NCBI GenBank assembly: GCA_017503285.1
Contig: JAFVTH010000024.1
Span: 1-33,781 of the forward strand
Length of the DNA: 33,781 nt
Source of the DNA: Clostridia bacterium
GTDB lineage: Bacteria; Bacillota; Clostridia; Oscillospirales; CAG-272
Direction: 5' to 3'
Shown here: positions 316-33,781 of the stretch, one piece after another
Layout: every line of letters begins with the position of its first letter
Position numbering within the stretch: the first letter of the stretch is position 1
Position numbers and translations under genes: made by a program
Notes under the pieces: model-generated
What the model saw: the letters and a program-made list of their open reading frames with translations, nothing else
Database searches by the model: none
Told to the model about the DNA's origin: nothing

Positions 316-1362
316 CTATTTTTTATATTTTGCCAAGCTTGTATTTACCTCTGTTACAATGAAATGGACAACTATATCCTCCGACTCATAGCCCTCCATT
401 TCGGGCACGGTTATGTAGTATAGACAGCTTTTATCAGTTGTTTCCCATTCCTTACTATATTCTAATGATATATACAGGTTGTTGCCCGCTGTACTAACAC
501 TATGAAAGGTGTATTCTGGTAGGCTTTTAACTGTATTTTCTACATAAATCAGCAAATACACATTTGTAGATGCGTCCCATGGACGAAGCGGAAGATTTAA
601 GCCGGGGTGCTTTTCGTTCAGCTTCTCTATTTCTTGGTTGCCTCGCACATATATCACGGTGTTGCTTGGCAAATCAAGCTCACAATTTCTTTCGGAATAG
701 CCGTTGTAACCATCGGTATTTGTTACATCCACATGGGACTTTGCTTGGATTTTTATTTCCCCCTCTAACTCGTGGGGTTGAGAAAATTCATATCGATTAA
801 TTATAAAGTAGTGCCAATAGTAGACAAAGTCATCCGGCTCAGGACACTTATCCGGAGCGCCATCAAATCTCACCTCTTGATAGTAGTGATCTATAGTGGA
901 GCCTTCCGCACTGAGGTTTATGCCCTTAAATCCATATTCGCCGGATTCTATTCGACCATAAAGGTAGGTGTCCGCTTCTCTCACTATAACAAATTTGTTA
1001 TTTGAAAGGTTTATTTCGTTTAATTGCTCTTGGGTTATATTCGGAATTAGCTCTCTTATTTTTTCATAGGTGTCTATAATCTTGTAGTATGACACCATTT
1101 CCGGAAAGTCCTCTCCGATATAATCGCTTCCATCTATATTCAAGTCTAACTTTTTGTAAAAGCCTTCATATTTTATGTTTCGTGTGTACGCCACGTTGAC
1201 GGTGTTTCCAATAGTGCCTTTGTCCTCGTTATCGGCTACCAATCCACCACTTATGCCCGTTTCCGTTTGGCTAGACTCACTACCATTAGGTGGCAAAGGA
1301 GTGTTGCAGGCACATAGGCATAAAGCCAAAAGCATTGATAGGACCATAATTAGCTTTTTCAT
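316..1362 (-). CDS. Putative surface lipoprotein, paralogue 1 of 3
   Basis: 348 residues of unrecognised family. The N-terminus is a clear lipoprotein signal: Lys-Lys, a hydrophobic stretch of about 13 residues, then Leu-Cys-Ala-Cys with the lipidated cysteine probably at residue 19, followed by a Pro/Asn/Ser-rich linker. The mature part is polar, with alternating beta-like segments and aromatic residues, and is expected outside the cell on the membrane. It is homologous to the proteins at 30785-31837 and 31878-32924, sharing the signal peptide, motifs of the type YIGEDFP, FVIVREA and YGFKG, and a C-terminal HFIV/LT segment. The start is supported by GGGAGGTAACATT before ATG and by the promoter at 1397-1425. 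Role unknown. Confidence 0.85.
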   Translation of the reverse strand: MKKLIMVLSMLLALCLCACNTPLPPNGSESSQTETGISGGLVADNEDKGTIGNTVNVAYTRNIKYEGFYKKLDLNIDGSDYIGEDFPEMVSYYKIIDTYEKIRELIPNITQEQLNEINLSNNKFVIVREADTYLYGRIESGEYGFKGINLSAEGSTIDHYYQEVRFDGAPDKCPEPDDFVYYWHYFIINRYEFSQPHELEGEIKIQAKSHVDVTNTDGYNGYSERNCELDLPSNTVIYVRGNQEIEKLNEKHPGLNLPLRPWDASTNVYLLIYVENTVKSLPEYTFHSVSTAGNNLYISLEYSKEWETTDKSCLYYITVPEMEGYESEDIVVHFIVTEVNTSLAKYKK

Positions 1363-1784: not shown

Positions 1785-1804
1785 GTGTTCATAAACATTA
1801 TATC
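1777..1804. promoter_or_regulatory. Probable operator overlapping the fucosidase -10
   Basis: Perfect 10-base inverted repeat GATATAATGT / ACATTATATC with an 8-base centre, covering the -10 and the expected start of transcription. This is typical placement for a repressor site. A second small hairpin, CACCGC/GCGGTG (1804-1821), follows directly before the ribosome binding site. No regulator gene is nearby. Confidence 0.55.
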
Positions 1805-1838
1805 ACCGCAAGATGGCGGTGTCAACAAAGGAGAAAAA

Positions 1839-3506
1839 ATGAACAGCTTATATGAAAAATACGGTTTAAAGCCCTGTGGGGCGGTGCCGAATGAGAGGCA
1901 AATAGAATGGTATGGTCGAGAAAAGACAATATTCTTCCATTTTGGTATGAACACCTTTACAGGACGCGAGTGGGGAGACGGTACGGAAAGCCCGTCACTG
2001 TTTAACCCAACGGAGCTTGATGTGGAGCAATGGATAAGGACAATAAAGGACAGTGGCTTTACCACCGCAATTTTAACCGCTAAGCATCATGACGGCTTTT
2101 GCCTGTGGCAAACTAAATACACAGAGCATTCTGTGAAAAATTCTCCTTACAAAAACGGACAGGGTGACATAGTGCGTGAGTTTACAGAGGCTTGCCAAAA
2201 GTACGGCATCAAGGCAGGAATTTATTTGTCCCCTTGGGACAGGCACGAAAAAACTTGGGGAAGCCCTGAATATAACGATTTTTATGTGGGTCAGCTAACA
2301 GAGCTGCTTACTAATTACGGCAAGATTTGGGAATGCTGGTGGGACGGAGCAGGAAGCACCGAGGCAGTTTACGATTGGGAGCGCTGGGCAAAAACAGTGC
2401 GAAGCTTACAGCCCCATGCGGTTATTTTCGGTTCTCTTGGCGCTACTCCTTGGGTTGATGTGCGATGGGTAGGAAACGAAAAGGGCGTAGCGGGCAAGCC
2501 CTGCTATGCAACAATTAACCCTTACTCCTTAGTAGTTGAAAATACAAAGGAATTAAACCGGGGTAAATTGGGTGGCGAGCGCTTTATCCCTGCCGAGGTG
2601 GACGTTTCTATCCGTCCCGGCTGGTTTTACCACAGTGAGCAGGACGGACAGGTAAGAACGCCCGAAAATCTGATAGAGCTTTGGTTTACCTCAATTGGCA
2701 GTAATGCAGGCTTGCTTTTGAATTTGCCGCCTGACAAGCGTGGCTTGATACACGAAAATGACGCTTTGGCTGTGCGTAAATTCAATGAAATATTAAAAAG
2801 CACCCTGTCAAATAACTTGGCTGAAAATGCTAAAATAACAGGTAAGCATACAGGTGACTGCGTAGCGCAAAATTTGCTTGATAAAGGCAAATTTTACATA
2901 CCCGAAAGCAATGAAGCAACAATTGAAATTGATATAAGCGAGCCAAAGAAATTTAACACCTTGATTATAGGTGAAGGTATAGAACTTGGACACAGGGTGA
3001 CCAAAATCAAGGCAAAAGCCCTTGTGAATGGGGAATATACAACCCTTTTTGAAAGAGATATGATAGGTAACAAGCTGGCTGAACGCTTTGACACTGTTGT
3101 TAGCGATAAGCTGACAATAGAAATATCCGCCCTTGATTTACCGATTCTTAAGGATTTTGGCCTTTACCTTTTTGAAAACAGTCTTGACCGAAAGGCAAAA
3201 GCGGACAAAACCAAAAACCTTTTAGACAGCACCGTGGCAAGTGTTGATTACGGTATAAAAGAAATAGGCGTTAATTTAGGAGGCATTATCCCGTTTAACT
3301 TGATAAAAGCAAAAAACGTGGGGGACGTATCGTTTAAATTGTATGTTTTCAACGGCTCAGCCTTTGAATTGCTTGAAGAAGGTGAAAGCAATATGGGAAA
3401 CGTTGAGTGCTGTCTTAGCACAACCGTGGACACAGCCTACCGCTTCAAGTTAACCTTTGATAAGGAAATAAACGAAAACGTAAAAATAGAAGTTTTTAAT
3501 ACATAA
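1839..3506 (+). CDS. Alpha-L-fucosidase, GH29 family
   Basis: 555 residues. Releases L-fucose from fucosylated glycans. The N-terminal two thirds (about 10-350) form the GH29 barrel: IFFHFGMNTF near 31, AKHHDGFCLW (81-90), the sugar-binding His pair, and ECWWDGAG, with Asp169 the likely nucleophile. The C-terminal part (about 360-480) looks like a beta-sandwich of the F5/8 type C kind, with a further beta-rich tail. There is no signal peptide, so it is expected in the cytoplasm, acting on imported oligosaccharides. The start at 1839 is chosen for AAAGGAG seven bases upstream; the frame is open from GTG at 1785, but that would begin inside the operator. It stands alone between CCGTCCCCTGTCTCC repeats with no transporter beside it, which suggests acquisition as a single cassette. 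GH29 subfamily not decided. Confidence 0.9.
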   Translation: MNSLYEKYGLKPCGAVPNERQIEWYGREKTIFFHFGMNTFTGREWGDGTESPSLFNPTELDVEQWIRTIKDSGFTTAILTAKHHDGFCLWQTKYTEHSVKNSPYKNGQGDIVREFTEACQKYGIKAGIYLSPWDRHEKTWGSPEYNDFYVGQLTELLTNYGKIWECWWDGAGSTEAVYDWERWAKTVRSLQPHAVIFGSLGATPWVDVRWVGNEKGVAGKPCYATINPYSLVVENTKELNRGKLGGERFIPAEVDVSIRPGWFYHSEQDGQVRTPENLIELWFTSIGSNAGLLLNLPPDKRGLIHENDALAVRKFNEILKSTLSNNLAENAKITGKHTGDCVAQNLLDKGKFYIPESNEATIEIDISEPKKFNTLIIGEGIELGHRVTKIKAKALVNGEYTTLFERDMIGNKLAERFDTVVSDKLTIEISALDLPILKDFGLYLFENSLDRKAKADKTKNLLDSTVASVDYGIKEIGVNLGGIIPFNLIKAKNVGDVSFKLYVFNGSAFELLEEGESNMGNVECCLSTTVDTAYRFKLTFDKEINENVKIEVFNT

Positions 3507-3705: not shown

Positions 3706-3734
3706 AAAAAATGCGACACAGGGTCGCATTTTTT
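3706..3734. terminator. Terminator of the rluD operon (hairpin C)
   Basis: AAAAAATGCGAC / GTCGCATTTTTT with loop ACAGG. The end of the stem overlaps the rluD stop codon (3733-3735), so it should end transcription of the queA-to-rluD group. It also marks the left border of the conserved core. Confidence 0.8.
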
Positions 3735-29004: not shown

Positions 29005-29045
29005 AAAACAAAAAATGCGACACAGGGTCGCATTTTTTTGTTTTG
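29005..29045. terminator. Terminator of the foldase-like gene (hairpin E)
   Basis: Same AAAAAATGCGAC-ACAGG-GTCGCATTTTTT hairpin, starting one base after the stop codon and followed by TGTTTTGTTT. It lacks the promoter and palindrome parts of the longer element. It marks the right border of the conserved core. Confidence 0.88.
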
Positions 29046-29059
29046 TTTAAGACAGCGAA

Positions 29060-29084
29060 GACAGACCACCGTCCCCTGTCTCCC
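29060..29084. repeat. CCGTCCCCTGTCTCC repeat after small gene 3
   Basis: AGACAGACCACCGTCCCCTG with TCTCCC following. On the minus strand it begins three bases after the TAG stop of the gene at 29088-29456, so it closes that cassette. It is also close to the core-side hairpin. Confidence 0.8.
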
Positions 29085-29087
29085 GTT

Positions 29088-29456
29088 CTAGATAGAGAAA
29101 GATATTTTTTGACATGTAATATATATCTTTTTTCCGGAATGCTTTTCTATTAAAAAAGTTAACAGGGTATCGTTTTCGCTCGGTAAATCTTTAGGACACT
29201 TTTCCTCCAACGTTAATGATGATATCTCTTCATTATCCCCCCATATGTCGTTGCAATCAAAAATTACAGATTCAACTTGATAAAAAGTTACACAAGCCTC
29301 GCAAGAATAATAATTATTTTTCAAACAAATAACTGCGTTATCATTTTCAAAGATAAATTCTAAAATTCTTGCATCGTGTATGTAACTAGCACCGTATAAA
29401 AATGTTTTCAAACGAGCTTTTTCGTTCTTTGAAAATATTATTAAATCATTATTCAT
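29088..29456 (-). CDS. Small orphan protein 3, possible immunity protein
   Basis: 122 residues, no recognised family. Predominantly beta-strand and acidic, with a Cys-containing middle (YYSCEACVTFYQVESVIFDC) that may be a compact single domain; no signal peptide or membrane segment. The ATG at 29456 has GGAGG nine bases upstream, and overlaps the TGA of an upstream open tail (TGATG), which shows it was translated together with a protein now reduced to 24 codons. Such toxin-tail to immunity-gene coupling is typical of polymorphic toxin loci; the immunity role is inferred from layout alone. Confidence 0.6.
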   Translation of the reverse strand: MNNDLIIFSKNEKARLKTFLYGASYIHDARILEFIFENDNAVICLKNNYYSCEACVTFYQVESVIFDCNDIWGDNEEISSLTLEEKCPKDLPSENDTLLTFLIEKHSGKKIYITCQKISFSI

Positions 29457-29530
29457 CACCAACAACCTCCAAAATACATACTCGCATATGGTTCCGGAAC
29501 TTCATCTCCAAAATAAAAGTGTTTTCCTAG
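29456..29530 (-). pseudogene. 24-codon C-terminal tail 3, start missing
   Basis: Reads LGKHFYFGDEVPEPYASMYF and four more residues ending in Cys-Trp, then TGA. There is no start codon; the frame begins at the edge of a GACAAGGG-type repeat (29531). The stop shares one base with the start of the next gene. Probably the end of a larger protein, displaced or cut at the repeat. Fold not recognised. Confidence 0.5.
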
Positions 29531-29556
29531 AAGACAAGGGACAAGCCCCTGTCTCC
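29531..29556. repeat. Variant CCCCTGTCTCC repeat
   Basis: AAGACAAGGGACAAGCCCCT continues into GTCTCC. It belongs to the variant with GACAAGGGACAAGC in the left arm, also present at 30752-30778. Tail 3 begins at its edge. Confidence 0.7.
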
Positions 29557-29570
29557 TTTATAAATTTCAA

Positions 29571-29978
29571 TCACGAAGGCGCACCCTCGTCTCCTGTCTC
29601 CCACTTATTCATCGCAAATGTAATGTTTCCTTCTTGCCACTGATGTAACCAAAGCCTTTCAACAAATTTATTCTCGTCAGGCATTTCGTCAATTGAATCA
29701 ACCAAAATGCCGACACAGTAATTTAATTCGTCTCTATTCATTTTTACCTTTATAATTAGCCATTCGGCGGCAAAGATTCTCACTACTGCTTCTTCATGAT
29801 TTAAAAGTGCCTTAAATTCGATTATCTCCTCATTGTCTTCAAAGTTAATTTTTGAAAACTCTTTGTGGATTTTATCGCTTGTGCGATTATATTTTCTCAC
29901 TGATTTTGGCAATTCATAATCTACAGCTTTTTGTTGAATTATGTACTTTATCATCTTTTGGAAATTGCATTTTTTCAC
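29571..29978 (-). CDS. Small orphan protein 2, DUF2019-like, possible immunity protein
   Basis: 135 residues, cytoplasmic. The central segment ALLNHEEAVVRIFAAEWLI resembles DUF2019, helical-repeat-like small proteins often found as orphans; this is a pattern-based suggestion. The start is GTG at 29976-29978 and overlaps the TGA of the preceding tail (GTGA). At the other end the last residues (TGDEGAPS) are encoded by the repeat itself (CCTCGTCTCCTGTCTCC in the plus strand), so the native C-terminus was probably replaced when the repeat joined here. Confidence 0.6.
   Translation of the reverse strand: MKKCNFQKMIKYIIQQKAVDYELPKSVRKYNRTSDKIHKEFSKINFEDNEEIIEFKALLNHEEAVVRIFAAEWLIIKVKMNRDELNYCVGILVDSIDEMPDENKFVERLWLHQWQEGNITFAMNKWETGDEGAPS
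29588..29602. repeat. Short CGTCTCCTGTCTCCC repeat inside the end of small gene 2
   Basis: A degenerate copy of the repeat lying within the last codons of the minus-strand gene at 29571-29978. Confidence 0.55.
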
Positions 29979-30049
29979 TTTAACTCAACCCCTAGCTCTC
30001 TTAAAATGTTTTTTCCAAAACTAGTTTGCATTTCAAAGGATTTTCCCAA
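29975..30049 (-). pseudogene. 24-codon C-terminal tail 2, start missing
   Basis: Reads LGKSFEMQTSFGKNILRELG and four more residues (Val-Glu-Leu-Lys), then TGA. No start codon; the frame begins exactly where the CCGTCCCCTGTCTCC repeat ends (30050). Its stop overlaps the GTG of small gene 2. Same length and the same Leu-Gly-Lys entry as tail 3. Likely the C-terminal end of a lost toxin or other large protein. Confidence 0.55.
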
Positions 30050-30097
30050 GACAGACCACCGTCCCCTGTCTCCATGGACCACCGTCCCCTGTCTCCA
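30050..30097. repeat. Two tandem CCGTCCCCTGTCTCC repeats
   Basis: GACAGACCACCGTCCCCTGT then CTCCATG and a second GACCACCGTCCCCTGTCTCC. On the minus strand they separate the stop of small gene 1 (30104) from tail 2. Confidence 0.8.
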
Positions 30098-30103
30098 TGT
30101 GAT

Positions 30104-30424
30104 TTATTCCCAATCATACTTGTACCTTTTTTTAACGTCTCCAGTTTCGAAATACTCCGTCATCAAGTTTATCAAAATATCAAACATATCCTTAATCTCT
30201 CCTTCGCTATACCCAGCTAGCCAAAGTGCTTTTTTGTTGCGATATATTTCCGATCTATCTATACCAAATTCTTCCCTTTGTCCTTGGTACTCAAATACTA
30301 TTATTAAATTCCCAAAGTACTTATAATAGTATTGAAAATCTATCAAAACCGCATTATATTTGCTTAGCAGTTCCATTATTTTTTCTTTTTTTCTTTTTTC
30401 TTCTCTTTTAGCAGCAAAGAACAT
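30104..30424 (-). CDS. Small orphan protein 1, possible immunity protein
   Basis: 106 residues, no recognised family. A strongly basic first 15 residues (KREEKRKKEK) is followed by a mixed alpha/beta region with several Tyr residues (FQYYYKYFGNLIIVFEYQG) and an acidic C-terminus. GGAGG lies ten bases before ATG; the stop of the upstream tail lies 16 bases before the start, so they form one translation unit. Another possible start is Met17, but it has no binding site. Immunity role is inferred only from its position behind an open tail. Confidence 0.6.
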   Translation of the reverse strand: MFFAAKREEKRKKEKIMELLSKYNAVLIDFQYYYKYFGNLIIVFEYQGQREEFGIDRSEIYRNKKALWLAGYSEGEIKDMFDILINLMTEYFETGDVKKRYKYDWE

Positions 30425-30440
30425 GAACCCCTTACCTCCG

Positions 30441-30662
30441 TTAAAAACTCATCCATGGTATATTGTTGGCAATCAAATAGTGTATTTCGTGCCACGGCCC
30501 TGTTCCTGCTTGCACGACTTGATCTGCACATACAACAAATCTAGTTCCTAATGTATTGGCATCTTTAAGATACATCATATTATGAATATATTGATTCATA
30601 TCTCCAATTCTTCTGTATAGATTTTCGGATATGTAATAATAACCCGCGCCAACACTCGCCGC
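30441..30662 (-). pseudogene. 73-codon C-terminal tail 1, start missing
   Basis: An open frame of 73 codons without a start at its beginning: AASVGAGYYYISENLYRRIG at the broken end, then a central segment and GPWHEIHYLIANNIPWMSF before TAA. The N-terminal break falls at the T run of a hairpin copy (AAAAAATGCG joined to GCGAGTG). Its stop is 16 bases before small gene 1. It looks like the last domain or half-domain of a larger secreted or toxin-type protein; the conserved-looking Trp-His-Glu-Ile-His is notable. Family not recognised. Confidence 0.6.
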
Positions 30663-30721
30663 ATTTTTTGTTTTGTTTTTCTGTTTAGCCGCTTAGCCAT
30701 CTGCCCTTTTGATAAGGTAAG
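30661..30721. repeat. Segment shared with 1555-1613
   Basis: GCATTTTTTGTTTTGTTTT followed by TTAGCCGCTTAGCCATCTGC and CCTTTTG: nearly the same sequence stands at 1555-1613 after hairpin B. Here only half of the hairpin remains, because tail 1 is joined at its base. Confidence 0.75.
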
Positions 30722-30751
30722 GCGCAAAGCCTTTAAGAATCCGAAGGGTGG

Positions 30752-30778
30752 GGAGACAAGGGACAAGCCCCCGTCTTT
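30752..30778. repeat. Variant GACAAGGGACAAGCCCC repeat
   Basis: GGAGACAAGGGACAAGCCCC then CGTCTTTT. Same variant as 29531-29556. It lies directly after the stop of lipoprotein 2 on the minus strand. Confidence 0.65.
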
Positions 30779-30784
30779 TCTTGA

Positions 30785-31837
30785 CTAAATTTTTTCTTTG
30801 ATTACATATTCCTCTGTTAAAAAGTGAAGCTGCACATATTTAGTATTTATATCCTCTATTTTGCTATCGGATACGTAAATAAAGAATGTTCTACTTTTCG
30901 TTTCCTTGTTTAGGTTTTGTATTAGCTTCATATCGAGATATATGTTGTTACTATCGCTCCTTATATCGTTAAAGGTGTCAAGCAGTGGCTCAAAGCTTGT
31001 TTCCTCTAAGTACAGAACAACAATTGTATCCTCAAACTTCATATTTTCAGGCAAGGTAAGATTTGGATATTCTTCTCTAATTTGCTCCAGCTCATTAGGA
31101 TATCTTATTATAAACGAGGATTTGTCCGGGATATCCTGCTTGCCGTCAACATAGTCATATCTGAAAAACCTTTCATTTCCCTTACTATATTCCCAGCCGT
31201 TCCAGCTTGTATATTCACATACATCCTCGGTAACTATTTTGCCACAGGTTATTTTTTCCTGTTCAACTATACGGCTTATCTCATCCTTTGGCACTAATAG
31301 ATAATGATATGTGTATATAAAATCCTTTGGCTCAACAAGCCCCACATCCGGCATTGCATAATCGGTTTTTTCGTACCACGCCTGGCTTATGGTTGCACCA
31401 CATTTTGTTAACCTAAGGTCCTTAAAGCCATATTCTATTTTCCTTGCATAATACTCGTACTCGTTAACTACCTCACGGATTACAACCAAATAATTATTAT
31501 AGCCGATTTTGGCTTGCTCCTCAGAGGTAATGCCGGCAACATTTTCGTGTATTTCAGACAAGGTTGTTAAGACTTGAAAGTATTCGCCCGTTTCAGGAAT
31601 CGCGTTGCCGATATATTCCTTATCGGTGCTATCAAGCTCTAAATACGTGTCAAAATATGTTGGCTCACAGCTCATTATTTTTGCAATAGAGCCAAACGGA
31701 AGCTCTTGTGGACCTTCGTCCTGTGTCAAGCTACCATTTCCTGTTTGAGTGCCGCTACCATTAGGTGGCAAAGGAGTGTTGCAGGCACACAGGCATAAAG
31801 CCATCATAAGAGCAACTAACATTAAAAGCTTTTTCAT
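30785..31837 (-). CDS. Putative surface lipoprotein, paralogue 2 of 3
   Basis: 350 residues. Signal peptide MKKLLMLVALMMALCLCACN with the lipidated Cys at 19, then the same PLPPNG linker as the other two copies. Shared blocks with paralogues: YIGNAIPETGEYFQVL, NYLVVIREVVNEYEYYARKI, YGFKDLRL, a YTYHYLLVPK segment and a C-terminal YVQLHFLTEEYVIKEKI. The mature sequence differs strongly from both others, while the codons around the lipobox are nearly identical to lipoprotein 1. It follows lipoprotein 3 with a 40-base gap and a weak binding site (GAGGGGGG), so it is probably co-transcribed with it. Function unknown. Confidence 0.85.
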   Translation of the reverse strand: MKKLLMLVALMMALCLCACNTPLPPNGSGTQTGNGSLTQDEGPQELPFGSIAKIMSCEPTYFDTYLELDSTDKEYIGNAIPETGEYFQVLTTLSEIHENVAGITSEEQAKIGYNNYLVVIREVVNEYEYYARKIEYGFKDLRLTKCGATISQAWYEKTDYAMPDVGLVEPKDFIYTYHYLLVPKDEISRIVEQEKITCGKIVTEDVCEYTSWNGWEYSKGNERFFRYDYVDGKQDIPDKSSFIIRYPNELEQIREEYPNLTLPENMKFEDTIVVLYLEETSFEPLLDTFNDIRSDSNNIYLDMKLIQNLNKETKSRTFFIYVSDSKIEDINTKYVQLHFLTEEYVIKEKI

Positions 31838-31877: not shown

Positions 31878-32924
31878 TTATTCTGTTTTTGCAGGTATTT
31901 TCTCCCTGGTGGTGTATTCGCTTACTATTAAATGTATTTCTGCATTTTCCAAATCTACATCTCTCATTTCAATACTCGGCAATTTAATCATATACAGCAT
32001 TTTTCTCGTCTTTTTCCACGCCTTGTTCTGTTCTGCTGTTATATAAATATCTTTCTCGTTTATTGACAAGTTATAGAATATACATTCAGGAGTATCAATG
32101 TATGCGTTTCCCTCTAAATAAAGATACATATAGTAACAAATTTGATTATCCTTTTCATCCGGATACAGCGGCAGATTCAGAGTTGGAAAATCCTCATTTA
32201 ATTCTTTAATTTGCTCGTTTCCTCTGAACAATATAGCTGTGTTCACCTCTAAAGGAAGCTCTTCTACGGTAGAACCCCAATAGCTCACATGCCTTTCCTC
32301 AATATCCATGTTATATGAACCTTCGTATATAGAGCTGTTTTGTATTGTTATTTTACCAAATGTGTTTAGCGTGTTAATTTTTCTTTCCGATTTTGGCACA
32401 ATTAAATAATAATAGGTATAGCTATAATCCTCAGGCTCTATCGGTGACGCGTCCGCACAACCATGCGCCATAATTTCATGCCAGTTAAAGGTTACACTTG
32501 CGCCATCGTCAGATATTTCCAGGTTTTTAAAGCCATTTTCGCCTTTTCTTGTTTCTCCTATATAACGCATTGGGTGCGCTTCACGTATTACCACAAAATA
32601 ATTGTTTTCCAAATCTATTGCTTCAAGATCATCGTTTGTAACATTGGAAATCTTTTCAACAATTTTATCGTTAGTATTAAAAATTTGATAGTAGCTACCG
32701 GTTTTTGGAAAGTCATCGCCTATATACTCTCTCCCCTCGGTGTCTAATTCCAAATAGAAATCGTCATATTTTGCTCCACCGGCATATATAACATTAAATT
32801 CATTGCCTATTTCTATTATCTCTTCTCCGGTCTGTGGCTCGTCATCATTCGGCGGCAAAGGAGTGTTGCAGGCGCACAGGCATAAAGCCAAAAGCATTGA
32901 TAGGACCATAATTAGCTTTTTCAT
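31878..32924 (-). CDS. Putative surface lipoprotein, paralogue 3 of 3
   Basis: 348 residues. Signal peptide identical to paralogue 1 (MKKLIMVLSMLLALCLCACN, lipidated Cys at 19). Family blocks: YIGDDFPKTGSYYQIF, NNYFVVIREA, NGFKNLEIS, YTYYYLIVPKSERK, a region LNLPLYPD shared with paralogue 1 (LNLPLRPW), and the ending IHLIVSEYTTREKI. The start has GGGAGGTAACATT and the promoter at 32959-32987. From the promoter into the signal peptide the DNA is almost identical to paralogue 1, though the mature proteins are only distantly alike. Confidence 0.86.
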   Translation of the reverse strand: MKKLIMVLSMLLALCLCACNTPLPPNDDEPQTGEEIIEIGNEFNVIYAGGAKYDDFYLELDTEGREYIGDDFPKTGSYYQIFNTNDKIVEKISNVTNDDLEAIDLENNYFVVIREAHPMRYIGETRKGENGFKNLEISDDGASVTFNWHEIMAHGCADASPIEPEDYSYTYYYLIVPKSERKINTLNTFGKITIQNSSIYEGSYNMDIEERHVSYWGSTVEELPLEVNTAILFRGNEQIKELNEDFPTLNLPLYPDEKDNQICYYMYLYLEGNAYIDTPECIFYNLSINEKDIYITAEQNKAWKKTRKMLYMIKLPSIEMRDVDLENAEIHLIVSEYTTREKIPAKTE

Positions 32925-33098: not shown

Positions 33099-33127
33099 AA
33101 AAAATGCGACACAGGGTCGCATTTTTT
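33099..33127. terminator. Symmetric terminator hairpin D
   Basis: AAAAAATGCGAC / GTCGCATTTTTT with loop ACAGG. Either ends a transcript from the right or insulates the promoter of lipoprotein 3. Confidence 0.75.
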
Positions 33128-33254: not shown

Positions 33255-33422
33255 CGGGCAGATATGGAATCTGCCCCTACGGGTACAAACCTCTCTTATG
33301 AAATAAATATAGATAACAATCTCTTTTAAAAGCCCCCTTGTGAAAGGGGGGAGAGCCACGATAGTGGAGGGGGGATTGTTTCATTTGTGTGAGGACCACA
33401 ATCCCTCCGTCATTTTCTCTCG
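33255..33422. repeat. Long direct repeat, left copy
   Basis: About 168 bases nearly identical to 33613-33781 (one extra C and a few substitutions). Begins with the palindrome GGGCAGATATGGAATCTGCCC-like sequence written here as GGGCAGATATGG / AATCTGCCC and continues into the MITE-like element. The period of about 359 bases and the cut at the window edge suggest that the array goes on. Confidence 0.85.
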
Positions 33423-33455
33423 AAAATGCCACCTCCCTTTAACAAGGGAGGCTTT
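33328..33455. mobile_element. MITE-like palindromic element
   Basis: About 128 bases with imperfect terminal inverted repeats: AAAGCCCCCTTGTGAAAGGG at the left and CCTCCCTTTAACAAGGGAGG followed by CTTT at the right. Inside, GGAGGGGGGATTGT faces ACAATCCCTCC. No coding capacity. A second copy starts at 33686 and runs off the window. No target-site duplication was established. Confidence 0.6.
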
Positions 33456-33612
33456 GAAGAAAGACATACCTTGAGAATTTTCGGTGAGAGATACGTCCCT
33501 GCCCTACGGGTTTGTATGTATTCCTCTTCCCTTCGGTGGGCTTTGCCACGTTGTTGCGGGCAGTCGGACACGCCTGCCCTACGGGGAAGTAAGAGCGAGC
33601 TTTGCGATATTT

Positions 33613-33781
33613 CGGGCAGATATGGAATCTACCCCTACGGGTACAAACCTCTCTTTTGAAATAAATATAGATAACAATCTCTTTTAAAAGCCCCCCTTGT
33701 GAAAGGGGGGAGAGCCACGATAGTGGAGGGGGGATTGTTTCATTTGTGTGAGGACCACAATCCCTCCGTCATTTTCTCTCG
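33613..33781. repeat. Long direct repeat, right copy (cut by window end)
   Basis: Second copy of 33255-33422, including the left part of a second MITE-like element (from 33686). Confidence 0.85.

What the first reader, a model, noticed from the sequence alone, without database searches (positions are those of the whole stretch)
29050..30780. Array of start-less C-terminal tails, each coupled to a small orphan gene and bounded by repeats: a possible toxin-tail/immunity cassette store
Read on the minus strand, three modules follow each other: tail 1 (73 codons) with a 106-residue gene, tail 2 (24 codons) with a 135-residue gene, and tail 3 (24 codons) with a 122-residue gene. None of the tails has a start codon and each begins at a repeat or hairpin edge. 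Their stops lie 16 bases before, overlap (GTGA) or overlap (TGATG) the start of the next gene. Orphan toxin tips with cognate immunity genes are known from Rhs, CDI and WXG/LXG loci, but there the tips usually keep a recombination homology region. Here a short CCGTCCCCTGTCTCC repeat seems to take that place. Direct evidence: frames, overlaps, repeat edges. Toxin/immunity identity is inference.
Basis: partly seen in the sequence, partly recalled or inferred. Interest (0 to 1): 0.78.

Follow-up and report, generated by a model that had tools for sequence, protein, structure and literature searches.

The report
Orphan immunity genes with toxin stubs
A gut bacterium appears to keep a row of antidote genes against rival bacteria's Rhs toxins, each still attached to the broken-off last few codons of the toxin it once came with and mostly fenced by small DNA hairpins; this is a variant of a known kind of antidote array.

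Summary
The three modules are real. All three tails resemble C-terminal ends of Rhs toxin tips, and each is still followed by a gene of the family that usually partners that tip.

Tail 1 is 67% identical over 76 residues to the end of a 1904-codon Rhs frame elsewhere in the same genome, with a homologous gene next to it there. Tail 3 matches Rhs tips whose next gene is of the 122-aa family in 16 of 17 named loci. Tail 2 matches HNH-type Rhs tips; in 3 of 4 loci the next gene is of the 135-aa family.

Two tails keep 24 codons and one 73, while the partner genes are open. Best reading: a heterogeneous polyimmunity array, made of displaced Rhs modules that lost the toxin and kept the immunity gene with its ribosome site.

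The repeats look like REP hairpins. In same-genus genomes they lie beside a Y1 (RAYT-like) transposase, but also at many places without Rhs. By layout alone, such modules are not clearly commoner beside repeats than at random sites. A recombination role for the repeat is unproven. Immunity arrays with effector remnants are known from Vibrio; this is a variant in uncultured gut Clostridia.

The parts
30663..30783 (-). Flank: REP-type hairpin plus spacer ending in the 5' half of a terminator (AAAACAAAACAAAAAATGCG); the 3' arm is missing and replaced by tail 1
   Evidence: 116 of 122 aligned columns identical to L010 8267-8388 (own genome, contig 8), where the terminator is complete; the two diverge right after ATGCG
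30441..30662 (-). Tail 1: last 73 codons and stop of an Rhs toxin tip (tip 1 family)
   Evidence: 67% identity over 76 aa to the C-terminus of a 1904-aa Rhs frame at G000:C8; third member G016:C17 ends a 2177-aa Rhs frame; alignment A6
30104..30424 (-). Immunity-type gene 1, 106 aa
   Evidence: 47% and 34% identity to the genes directly after the two other tip 1 copies; no Pfam match above cut-off
30048..30096 (-). Two tandem REP-like hairpins (GGAGACAGGGGACGGTGG...)
   Evidence: hairpin fold -3.8 kcal/mol, z -2.1 for 30048-30073
29975..30049 (-). Tail 2: last 24 codons and stop of an HNH-type Rhs tip, starting at the repeat edge
   Evidence: Score 53 to the L094 tip with 0 of 5000 shuffles as good, 41 to L095 (0 of 5000), 39 to L093 (1 of 5000), 22 to L096 (757 of 5000, not significant); alignment A2
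29571..29978 (-). Immunity-type gene 2, 135 aa, distantly DUF2019/HEAT-like family; last residues encoded by a degenerate repeat
   Evidence: Window protein matches a profile of its relatives built without it, E 4e-13 against 0.48 for the best shuffle; relatives follow HNH tips in L093 and L094 and, fused to ankyrin repeats, in L096; no Pfam hit for the window protein itself
29531..29556 (-). REP-like hairpin, second type (GGAGACAGGGGCTTGTCCCTTGTCTT)
   Evidence: fold -6.5 kcal/mol, z -3.7
29456..29530 (-). Tail 3: last 24 codons and stop of an Rhs tip (tip 3 family, HYxxGxxVPEP[YW]..YF end), starting at the repeat edge
   Evidence: Scores 60-73 to six tips, 0 of 5000 shuffles as good in each; found on its own by the tip 3 search, E 0.009; alignment A1
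29088..29456 (-). Immunity-type gene 3, 122 aa, with conserved HD
   Evidence: 39% identity, E 5e-14, to the gene after a tip 3 Rhs fragment in G026; next gene in 16 of 17 tip 3 loci matches the family profile
29058..29083 (-). REP-like hairpin closing the array
   Evidence: identical to 30048-30073; a nearly identical REP-plus-terminator end occurs at G000:C17
29004..29041 (-). Intrinsic terminator at the end of the array
   Evidence: 12-pair stem followed by T run; fold z -6.1; the 25-mer core occurs 19 times in the genome

Best explanation
This is a heterogeneous polyimmunity array made from displaced Rhs tip-immunity modules. In each module the toxin part has been cut back from its 5' side, leaving 73, 24 and 24 codons, while the immunity gene stayed open. 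Shown: the homology of the three tails and the coupling of each gene family to its tip in other genomes. Inferred: the stub is kept because the immunity gene starts inside or just after it and takes its ribosome site from there (GGAGG 9 nt before the ATG in tail 3, GGAGG in the 16-nt spacer after tail 1, a weaker AGGGG before the GTG in tail 2). Also inferred: the terminator that would separate the array from the lipoprotein genes upstream lost its 3' arm when tail 1 was joined, so the array is probably transcribed together with those genes and ends at 29010-29038. The proteins would then protect the cell against Rhs toxins of relatives that still carry the full tips. The hairpins are most likely REP elements that mark break or insertion points at module edges.
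For: Tail 1 and gene 1 have a complete counterpart in the same genome, and a third pair lies in G016. Tip 3 and gene 3 family: the next gene matched in 16 of 17 loci, 12 of the 16 not used to build the profile. Tip 2 and gene 2 family: 3 of 4 loci, checked with leave-one-out profiles. The five host proteins scanned are Rhs (TIGR03696, E 3e-19 to 3e-21). Intermediate stages exist: in G026 a 384-codon Rhs fragment with tip 3 and its partner lies behind a REP, downstream of a longer Rhs gene with another tip, and their cores are 92% identical over 190 residues. In own contig 8 a second Rhs piece with tip and partner starts behind two REPs. In G016 an open tip frame starts 3 nt from a REP, and another G016 contig holds four small genes among REP-like repeats with no Rhs core found. 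Ribosome sites. Terminator.
Against: No expression or activity data. Window gene 2 itself has no Pfam hit, and in its family only one of the members scanned passes the DUF2019 cut-off (L021; others below). A direct search with it reached the gene beside one HNH tip only weakly (G393, E 1.7e-3) and not those of G338 and G044; the link rests on the profile test. One of four HNH tips has a different next gene (L095, DMP19-like). Tail 2 is not significant against one of four tips (L096). dN/dS of gene 1 (0.43/2.85, dS saturated) and tail 1 (0.24/0.93) against contig 8 mostly reflects time before the truncation, so it does not prove present selection. The tandem layout is not clearly commoner at repeats than at random sites.
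Confidence: 0.78

Rival explanations
1. Neutral debris: an old Rhs locus is being broken up by REP elements and the small genes are still open only because the breaks are recent; nothing is selected.
For: Toxin parts are gone; a REP-encoded end already runs into gene 2; many same-genus REP sites lie beside other small frames.
Against: The three partner genes are of the length of their relatives while the three toxins are truncated, each up to the partner's start. Arrays of small genes among REPs recur in G016 and in own contig 17.
Confidence: 0.17
2. A mobile cassette system: REP hairpins at both ends of tip-immunity modules are used by a RAYT-type Y1 transposase to move or rearrange the modules.
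For: REPs flank modules 2 and 3 on both sides. A Y1_Tnp gene (PF01797, E 1.3e-16) lies among six REPs directly after a complete tip 1-immunity pair in G016. Pieces of the same transposase lie by REPs in four more of 32 regions. Rhs or tip homology starts 3 to about 104 nt from the nearest REP in L071, L030, L010 and L073.
Against: REPs also lie far from Rhs: 6 of 31 REP-bearing regions hold Rhs core (most of these regions were fetched because they hold REPs). The generic layout is not clearly enriched at REPs. Tail 1 is joined at a terminator, not a REP. The only Y1 gene found in the window's genome has no such REP in its fetched 3.4 kb, though the genome is about 75% complete. In G024 a similar Y1 gene has no REP in the 2.3 kb fetched. 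No empty site was looked for.
Confidence: 0.08
3. A store of toxin tips that can be recombined back onto an Rhs core.
For: Orphan tips serve this way in other Rhs and CDI loci (established knowledge, and passages of PMC5361080).
Against: Tails 2 and 3 keep only 24 codons and have lost the WHH and HYH parts seen in the complete tips; no Rhs core sequence was found in the window.
Confidence: 0.03
4. The tails are short leader peptides that regulate the small genes by translational coupling.
For: Stop-start overlaps GTGA and TGATG; in-frame ATGs inside the tails.
Against: Close or overlapping stop-start spacing is also found behind full Rhs tips, so it may simply be inherited; no leader is needed to explain it.
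Confidence: 0.05

Closest known systems
Orphan immunity gene arrays of Vibrio cholerae T6SS clusters (Kirchberger et al. 2017, PMC5361080; passages and section 13 read)
   Same: Several unrelated immunity genes in a row after displacement of effectors; that paper describes a displaced effector 3' end in the array and proposes homology-facilitated illegitimate recombination, like the 4-nt overlap at tail 1.
   Different: There T6SS effectors next to an active locus; here Rhs tips of Clostridia, no Rhs core found on this contig, and REP-like hairpins at most module edges.
Heterogeneous polyimmunity loci (Zhang et al. 2012, PMC3482391; passages read)
   Same: Tandem, structurally unrelated immunity genes without their toxins; recombinase genes sometimes nearby.
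   Different: Each gene here keeps the end of its toxin; the window genes have no Pfam family. The term DUF2019 does not occur in the held part of that text (300,000 of 357,715 characters).
Displaced or orphan Rhs tip-immunity pairs (PMC10539506 passages read; enterobacterial Rhs otherwise recalled)
   Same: Rhs core with exchangeable tips, and downstream orphan immunity genes shown to protect in Serratia.
   Different: Tips cut down to stubs; REPs at boundaries; Gram-positive gut lineage with a signal-peptide-like N-terminus on the full-length Rhs protein of G016 (read by eye).
REP elements and RAYT transposases (PMC3733652 passages read)
   Same: Short imperfect hairpins in tandem groups, beside a Y1 transposase in same-genus genomes.
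   Different: The words Firmicutes and Clostridi do not occur in that text; these hairpins were not assigned to its GTAG or CGTC classes here.

Membership tests
Rhs tip-immunity pair | Toxin domain sits at the C-terminus of an Rhs/YD protein | tested here: met
   For homologues of all three tails: by profile for five proteins and by tblastn of the core for G016; the rest read by eye
Rhs tip-immunity pair | Window copy carries a complete toxin domain on an Rhs core | tested here: not met
   73, 24 and 24 codons only; no core match in the window
Rhs tip-immunity pair | Cognate immunity gene directly downstream of the tip | tested here: met
   16 of 17 (tip 3), 3 of 4 (tip 2), 2 of 2 other copies (tip 1)
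Rhs tip-immunity pair | The gene neutralises the toxin | not testable with these tools
   Needs co-expression
Heterogeneous polyimmunity locus / immunity gene array | Several unrelated immunity-family genes in tandem on one strand without toxins | tested here: met
   Three families on the minus strand, toxins truncated
Heterogeneous polyimmunity locus / immunity gene array | Single polycistronic transcript | not testable with these tools
   Consistent only: broken terminator before, intact terminator after
REP/RAYT element | Short hairpin repeat, often in tandem, mostly outside genes, many copies | tested here: inconclusive
   Hairpin and tandem met; only 10 copies of the pattern in this genome and 41 in 29 genomes of the genus, own included; the backward control pattern gave 8
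REP/RAYT element | REPs flank a Y1 transposase gene | tested here: met
   In G016 contig 17; not seen in the window's own genome
Integron-like cassette array | Integrase, and a recombination site at every cassette edge | tested here: inconclusive
   The tail 1 edge has no repeat; no integrase was noticed in the window's ORF list (by reading; not scanned by profile)

The most novel reading that the evidence does not exclude
RAYT transposases and REP hairpins act as a cassette-trimming and cassette-moving machine for Rhs loci in gut Clostridia: single-strand cuts at REP edges separate immunity genes from their toxins and line them up as self-standing defence cassettes, each carrying its own ribosome site in a toxin stub.
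Probability: 0.08. Interest if true: 0.78.

Novelty: new variant of a known kind. Interest (0 to 1): 0.42.

Why it matters
It extends orphan immunity arrays with toxin remnants to Rhs loci of uncultured gut Clostridia. It names three tip-immunity pairs whose immunity genes have no Pfam family or only a distant one, and gives a candidate immunity role to DUF2019-like proteins beside HNH tips. It also offers a simple account of why such stubs survive (they carry the antidote's ribosome site) and raises a testable link between REP hairpins and the breakdown of toxin loci.

Tried and rejected
Metabolic or structural origin of the tails: rejected for the strong homologues, which are Rhs ends. Two weak tip 3 places are not Rhs-like (L104 in a repetitive 923-codon frame, E 0.002; L105 with two stops, E 0.007). 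Pfam and NCBIfam on the window's small genes: no hit above cut-off. Rfam at gathering score and tRNA search of the window: none. A scan of genome contigs with tail 1: nothing. PDB by sequence: nothing convincing for tip 3, tip 2 or gene 2 profiles (best E 0.044 and 0.062). Pfam TumE touches 2 of 8 tip 3 rows at E up to 0.1, best 0.007; left as a lead only. Layout test at REPs: negative. The upstream lipoproteins as further immunity genes: four copies, found only in this genome among 28 searched, so no toxin partner could be looked for. Literature: searches for 'REP-associated tyrosine transposase' with Rhs, DUF2019 with immunity, Rhs/orphan/immunity/Firmicutes/polymorphic toxin/remnant, and RAYT/REP sequences/Firmicutes gave no papers; this covers only the held open library. 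Searches gave listings from which the papers named here were taken.

Dropped or uncertain before counts: L104 and L105 were left out of the tip 3 alignment and neighbour count. The ORF reading for L122 did not recover the tip frame, although its next gene matched. L116 had no gene within 250 nt; an imm3-like gene lies further on in locus L101, which I take to be the same contig (equal length). Five of the 17 named loci carry sequences used to build the gene 3 profile (judged by equal contig length and sequence). L099 was left out. L031 has no REP and was left out as a REP region.
Full report
What was checked. The window is a whole contig (G000:C25, 33,781 bases) of a genome held as 32 contigs, 74.7% complete. 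On the minus strand the three modules stand as described: 73-codon tail, 16-nt gap, 106-aa gene; 24-codon tail overlapping (GTGA) a 135-aa gene; 24-codon tail overlapping (TGATG) a 122-aa gene. In-frame ATGs exist inside each tail, so 'no start codon' holds only for their beginnings. Tail 1 starts in a broken terminator, tails 2 and 3 at hairpin repeats.

Is it more than chance? By layout, not clearly. In 31 regions (the window plus 30 others; the REP-free region L031 was left out), a frame of at least 15 codons abutting an ORF of 80-300 aa was found at 3126 of 24800 random sites (12.6%), at 8 of 64 REP clusters on the 3' side and at 13 of 64 on the 5' side. By homology, yes. Tail 1 hits the last 76 residues of a 1904-codon frame in contig 8 of the same genome (E 2.4e-31, 67%), which is an Rhs protein (PF05593 and TIGR03696). 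Tail 3 scores 60-73 against six Rhs tips with 0 of 5000 shuffles as good each time, and tail 2 scores 53, 41, 39 and 22 against four HNH tips with 0, 0, 1 and 757 of 5000 shuffles as good. Crossed controls (tail 2 against tip 3, tail 3 against tip 2) were reached by 44 to 991 of 1000 shuffles. A search with the complete tip 3 domain also found window tail 3 on its own, at E 0.009.

Partner genes. The gene after tip 1 in contig 8 is 47% identical to window gene 1, and the one after the third tip 1 copy, behind a 2177-codon Rhs frame in G016, is 34% identical. In 395 genomes of the family, tip 1 was found in 2 genomes at 3 places, the window included. Tip 2 (HNH type by its WHH motif, read by eye and recalled) was found in 4 of 395 genomes. 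The next gene is of the gene 2 family in three (L093, L094, L096) and DMP19-like in L095. With profiles built without the tested member, window gene 2 scored E 4e-13, the L093 gene (as L028) 4e-28 and the L094 gene 1.5e-9. The L096 gene scored 4e-7 to 0.013 depending on the profile, and L095 was not among the top matches shown. The best shuffle was 0.2 and the best unrelated small gene 0.5. Pfam DUF2019 hits 3 of 6 members of the gene 2 alignment at E 0.1 or better, one of them over the cut-off, and not the window protein. Tip 3 was found in 10 of 395 genomes at E 0.01 or better: seven strong Rhs ends, the window, and two weak places that are not Rhs-like. A second search in named genomes gave 17 loci, all Clostridia by their titles or, from recall, their genus names. 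In 16 of 17 the next gene matches a profile of gene 3 relatives; 12 of the 16 were not used to build it.

Intermediate stages in relatives. Own contig 8: Rhs with tip 1 and its partner, two REPs, then a shorter Rhs piece with another tip and a 179-aa lipoprotein-like gene, then the flank that also precedes the window array. G026: a longer Rhs gene with one tip, a REP, then a 384-codon Rhs piece with tip 3 and its partner; the cores are 92% identical over 190 residues and homology begins 28 nt from the REP. G016 contig 27: a REP, an open tip frame starting 3 nt away and homologous (41%) to an Rhs tip of G393, then a small gene. G003 contig 20: Rhs pieces and small genes among REPs. G016 contig 19: four small genes among REP-like repeats and no Rhs core, one of them DUF2019 and one resembling (by eye) the contig 8 lipoprotein. 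I read these as a series from full toxin to bare immunity gene.

The repeats. They fold as short hairpins. The pattern GAGACAGGGGNNNGT occurs in 12 of 29 genomes of the genus, 41 places in all, 10 of them in this genome; the backward control gave 8 places. In G016 six copies surround a Y1 transposase next to the tip 1 pair, and pieces of that transposase occur near REPs in four more of 32 fetched regions. But only 6 of 31 REP-bearing regions contain Rhs core, so the repeats are not specific to Rhs loci. Y1 genes were found in 12 of 28 genomes; the one in the window's genome has none of these REPs in its fetched 3.4 kb.

How it most likely works. Incoming Rhs modules displace older tips; displaced pairs lose their toxin from the 5' side by illegitimate joins, and cells that keep the immunity gene with its ribosome site are favoured. 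Tail 1 shows one such join directly: a terminator stem and a toxin sequence meet at the shared letters TGCG. The missing terminator arm should let transcription from the lipoprotein genes run on to the terminator at 29010-29038. Protection against Rhs toxins of relatives is inferred; nothing here tests it.

Compared with what is known. Vibrio immunity arrays (PMC5361080, passages and section 13 read) and polyimmunity loci (PMC3482391, passages) are the same kind of thing. Orphan Rhs immunity has been shown to protect in Serratia (PMC10539506, passages). REP classes are described in PMC3733652 (passages). What differs here is the uniform stub-plus-gene form, the REP hairpins at most edges, the gut Clostridia host, and the tip and immunity families.

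Noticed in passing
30785-31837, 31878-32924, 316-1362 (minus): Three lipoprotein paralogues (33-34% identical to the first) plus a fourth on contig 12, found in no other of 28 genomes of the genus searched; copies of one identical terminator stand beside several of them.
   Followed up: partly
29012-29036, 33101-33125, 268-292, 1537-1561, 3708-3732: An identical 25-nt terminator core occurs 19 times in the genome, five times on this contig.
   Followed up: partly
33255-33781: A duplicated stretch with about 358-nt spacing and further hairpin repeats (CGGGCAGATATGGAATCTGCCC) at the contig end; judging from translated letters, a similar repeat lies beside the only Y1 transposase found in the genome, on contig 31.
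   Followed up: no
1628-1678 and 3542: Further copies of the same REP-like repeat around the fucosidase-like gene 1785-3506 (name from recall).
   Followed up: no
L067 8226-10550 (G000 contig 17): Small membrane-like and lipoprotein-like genes (by eye) among REPs, ending in nearly the same REP-plus-terminator unit as the window array; possibly a second polyimmunity locus.
   Followed up: partly
L096 1825-2673 (G044): Gene 2-like region fused to ankyrin repeats (Pfam Ank, E 1e-13) directly after an HNH Rhs tip.
   Followed up: partly
L073 7374-7817 and L080 5437-5982: More open frames that begin at a REP and run into small genes; homology to known tips not established.
   Followed up: no
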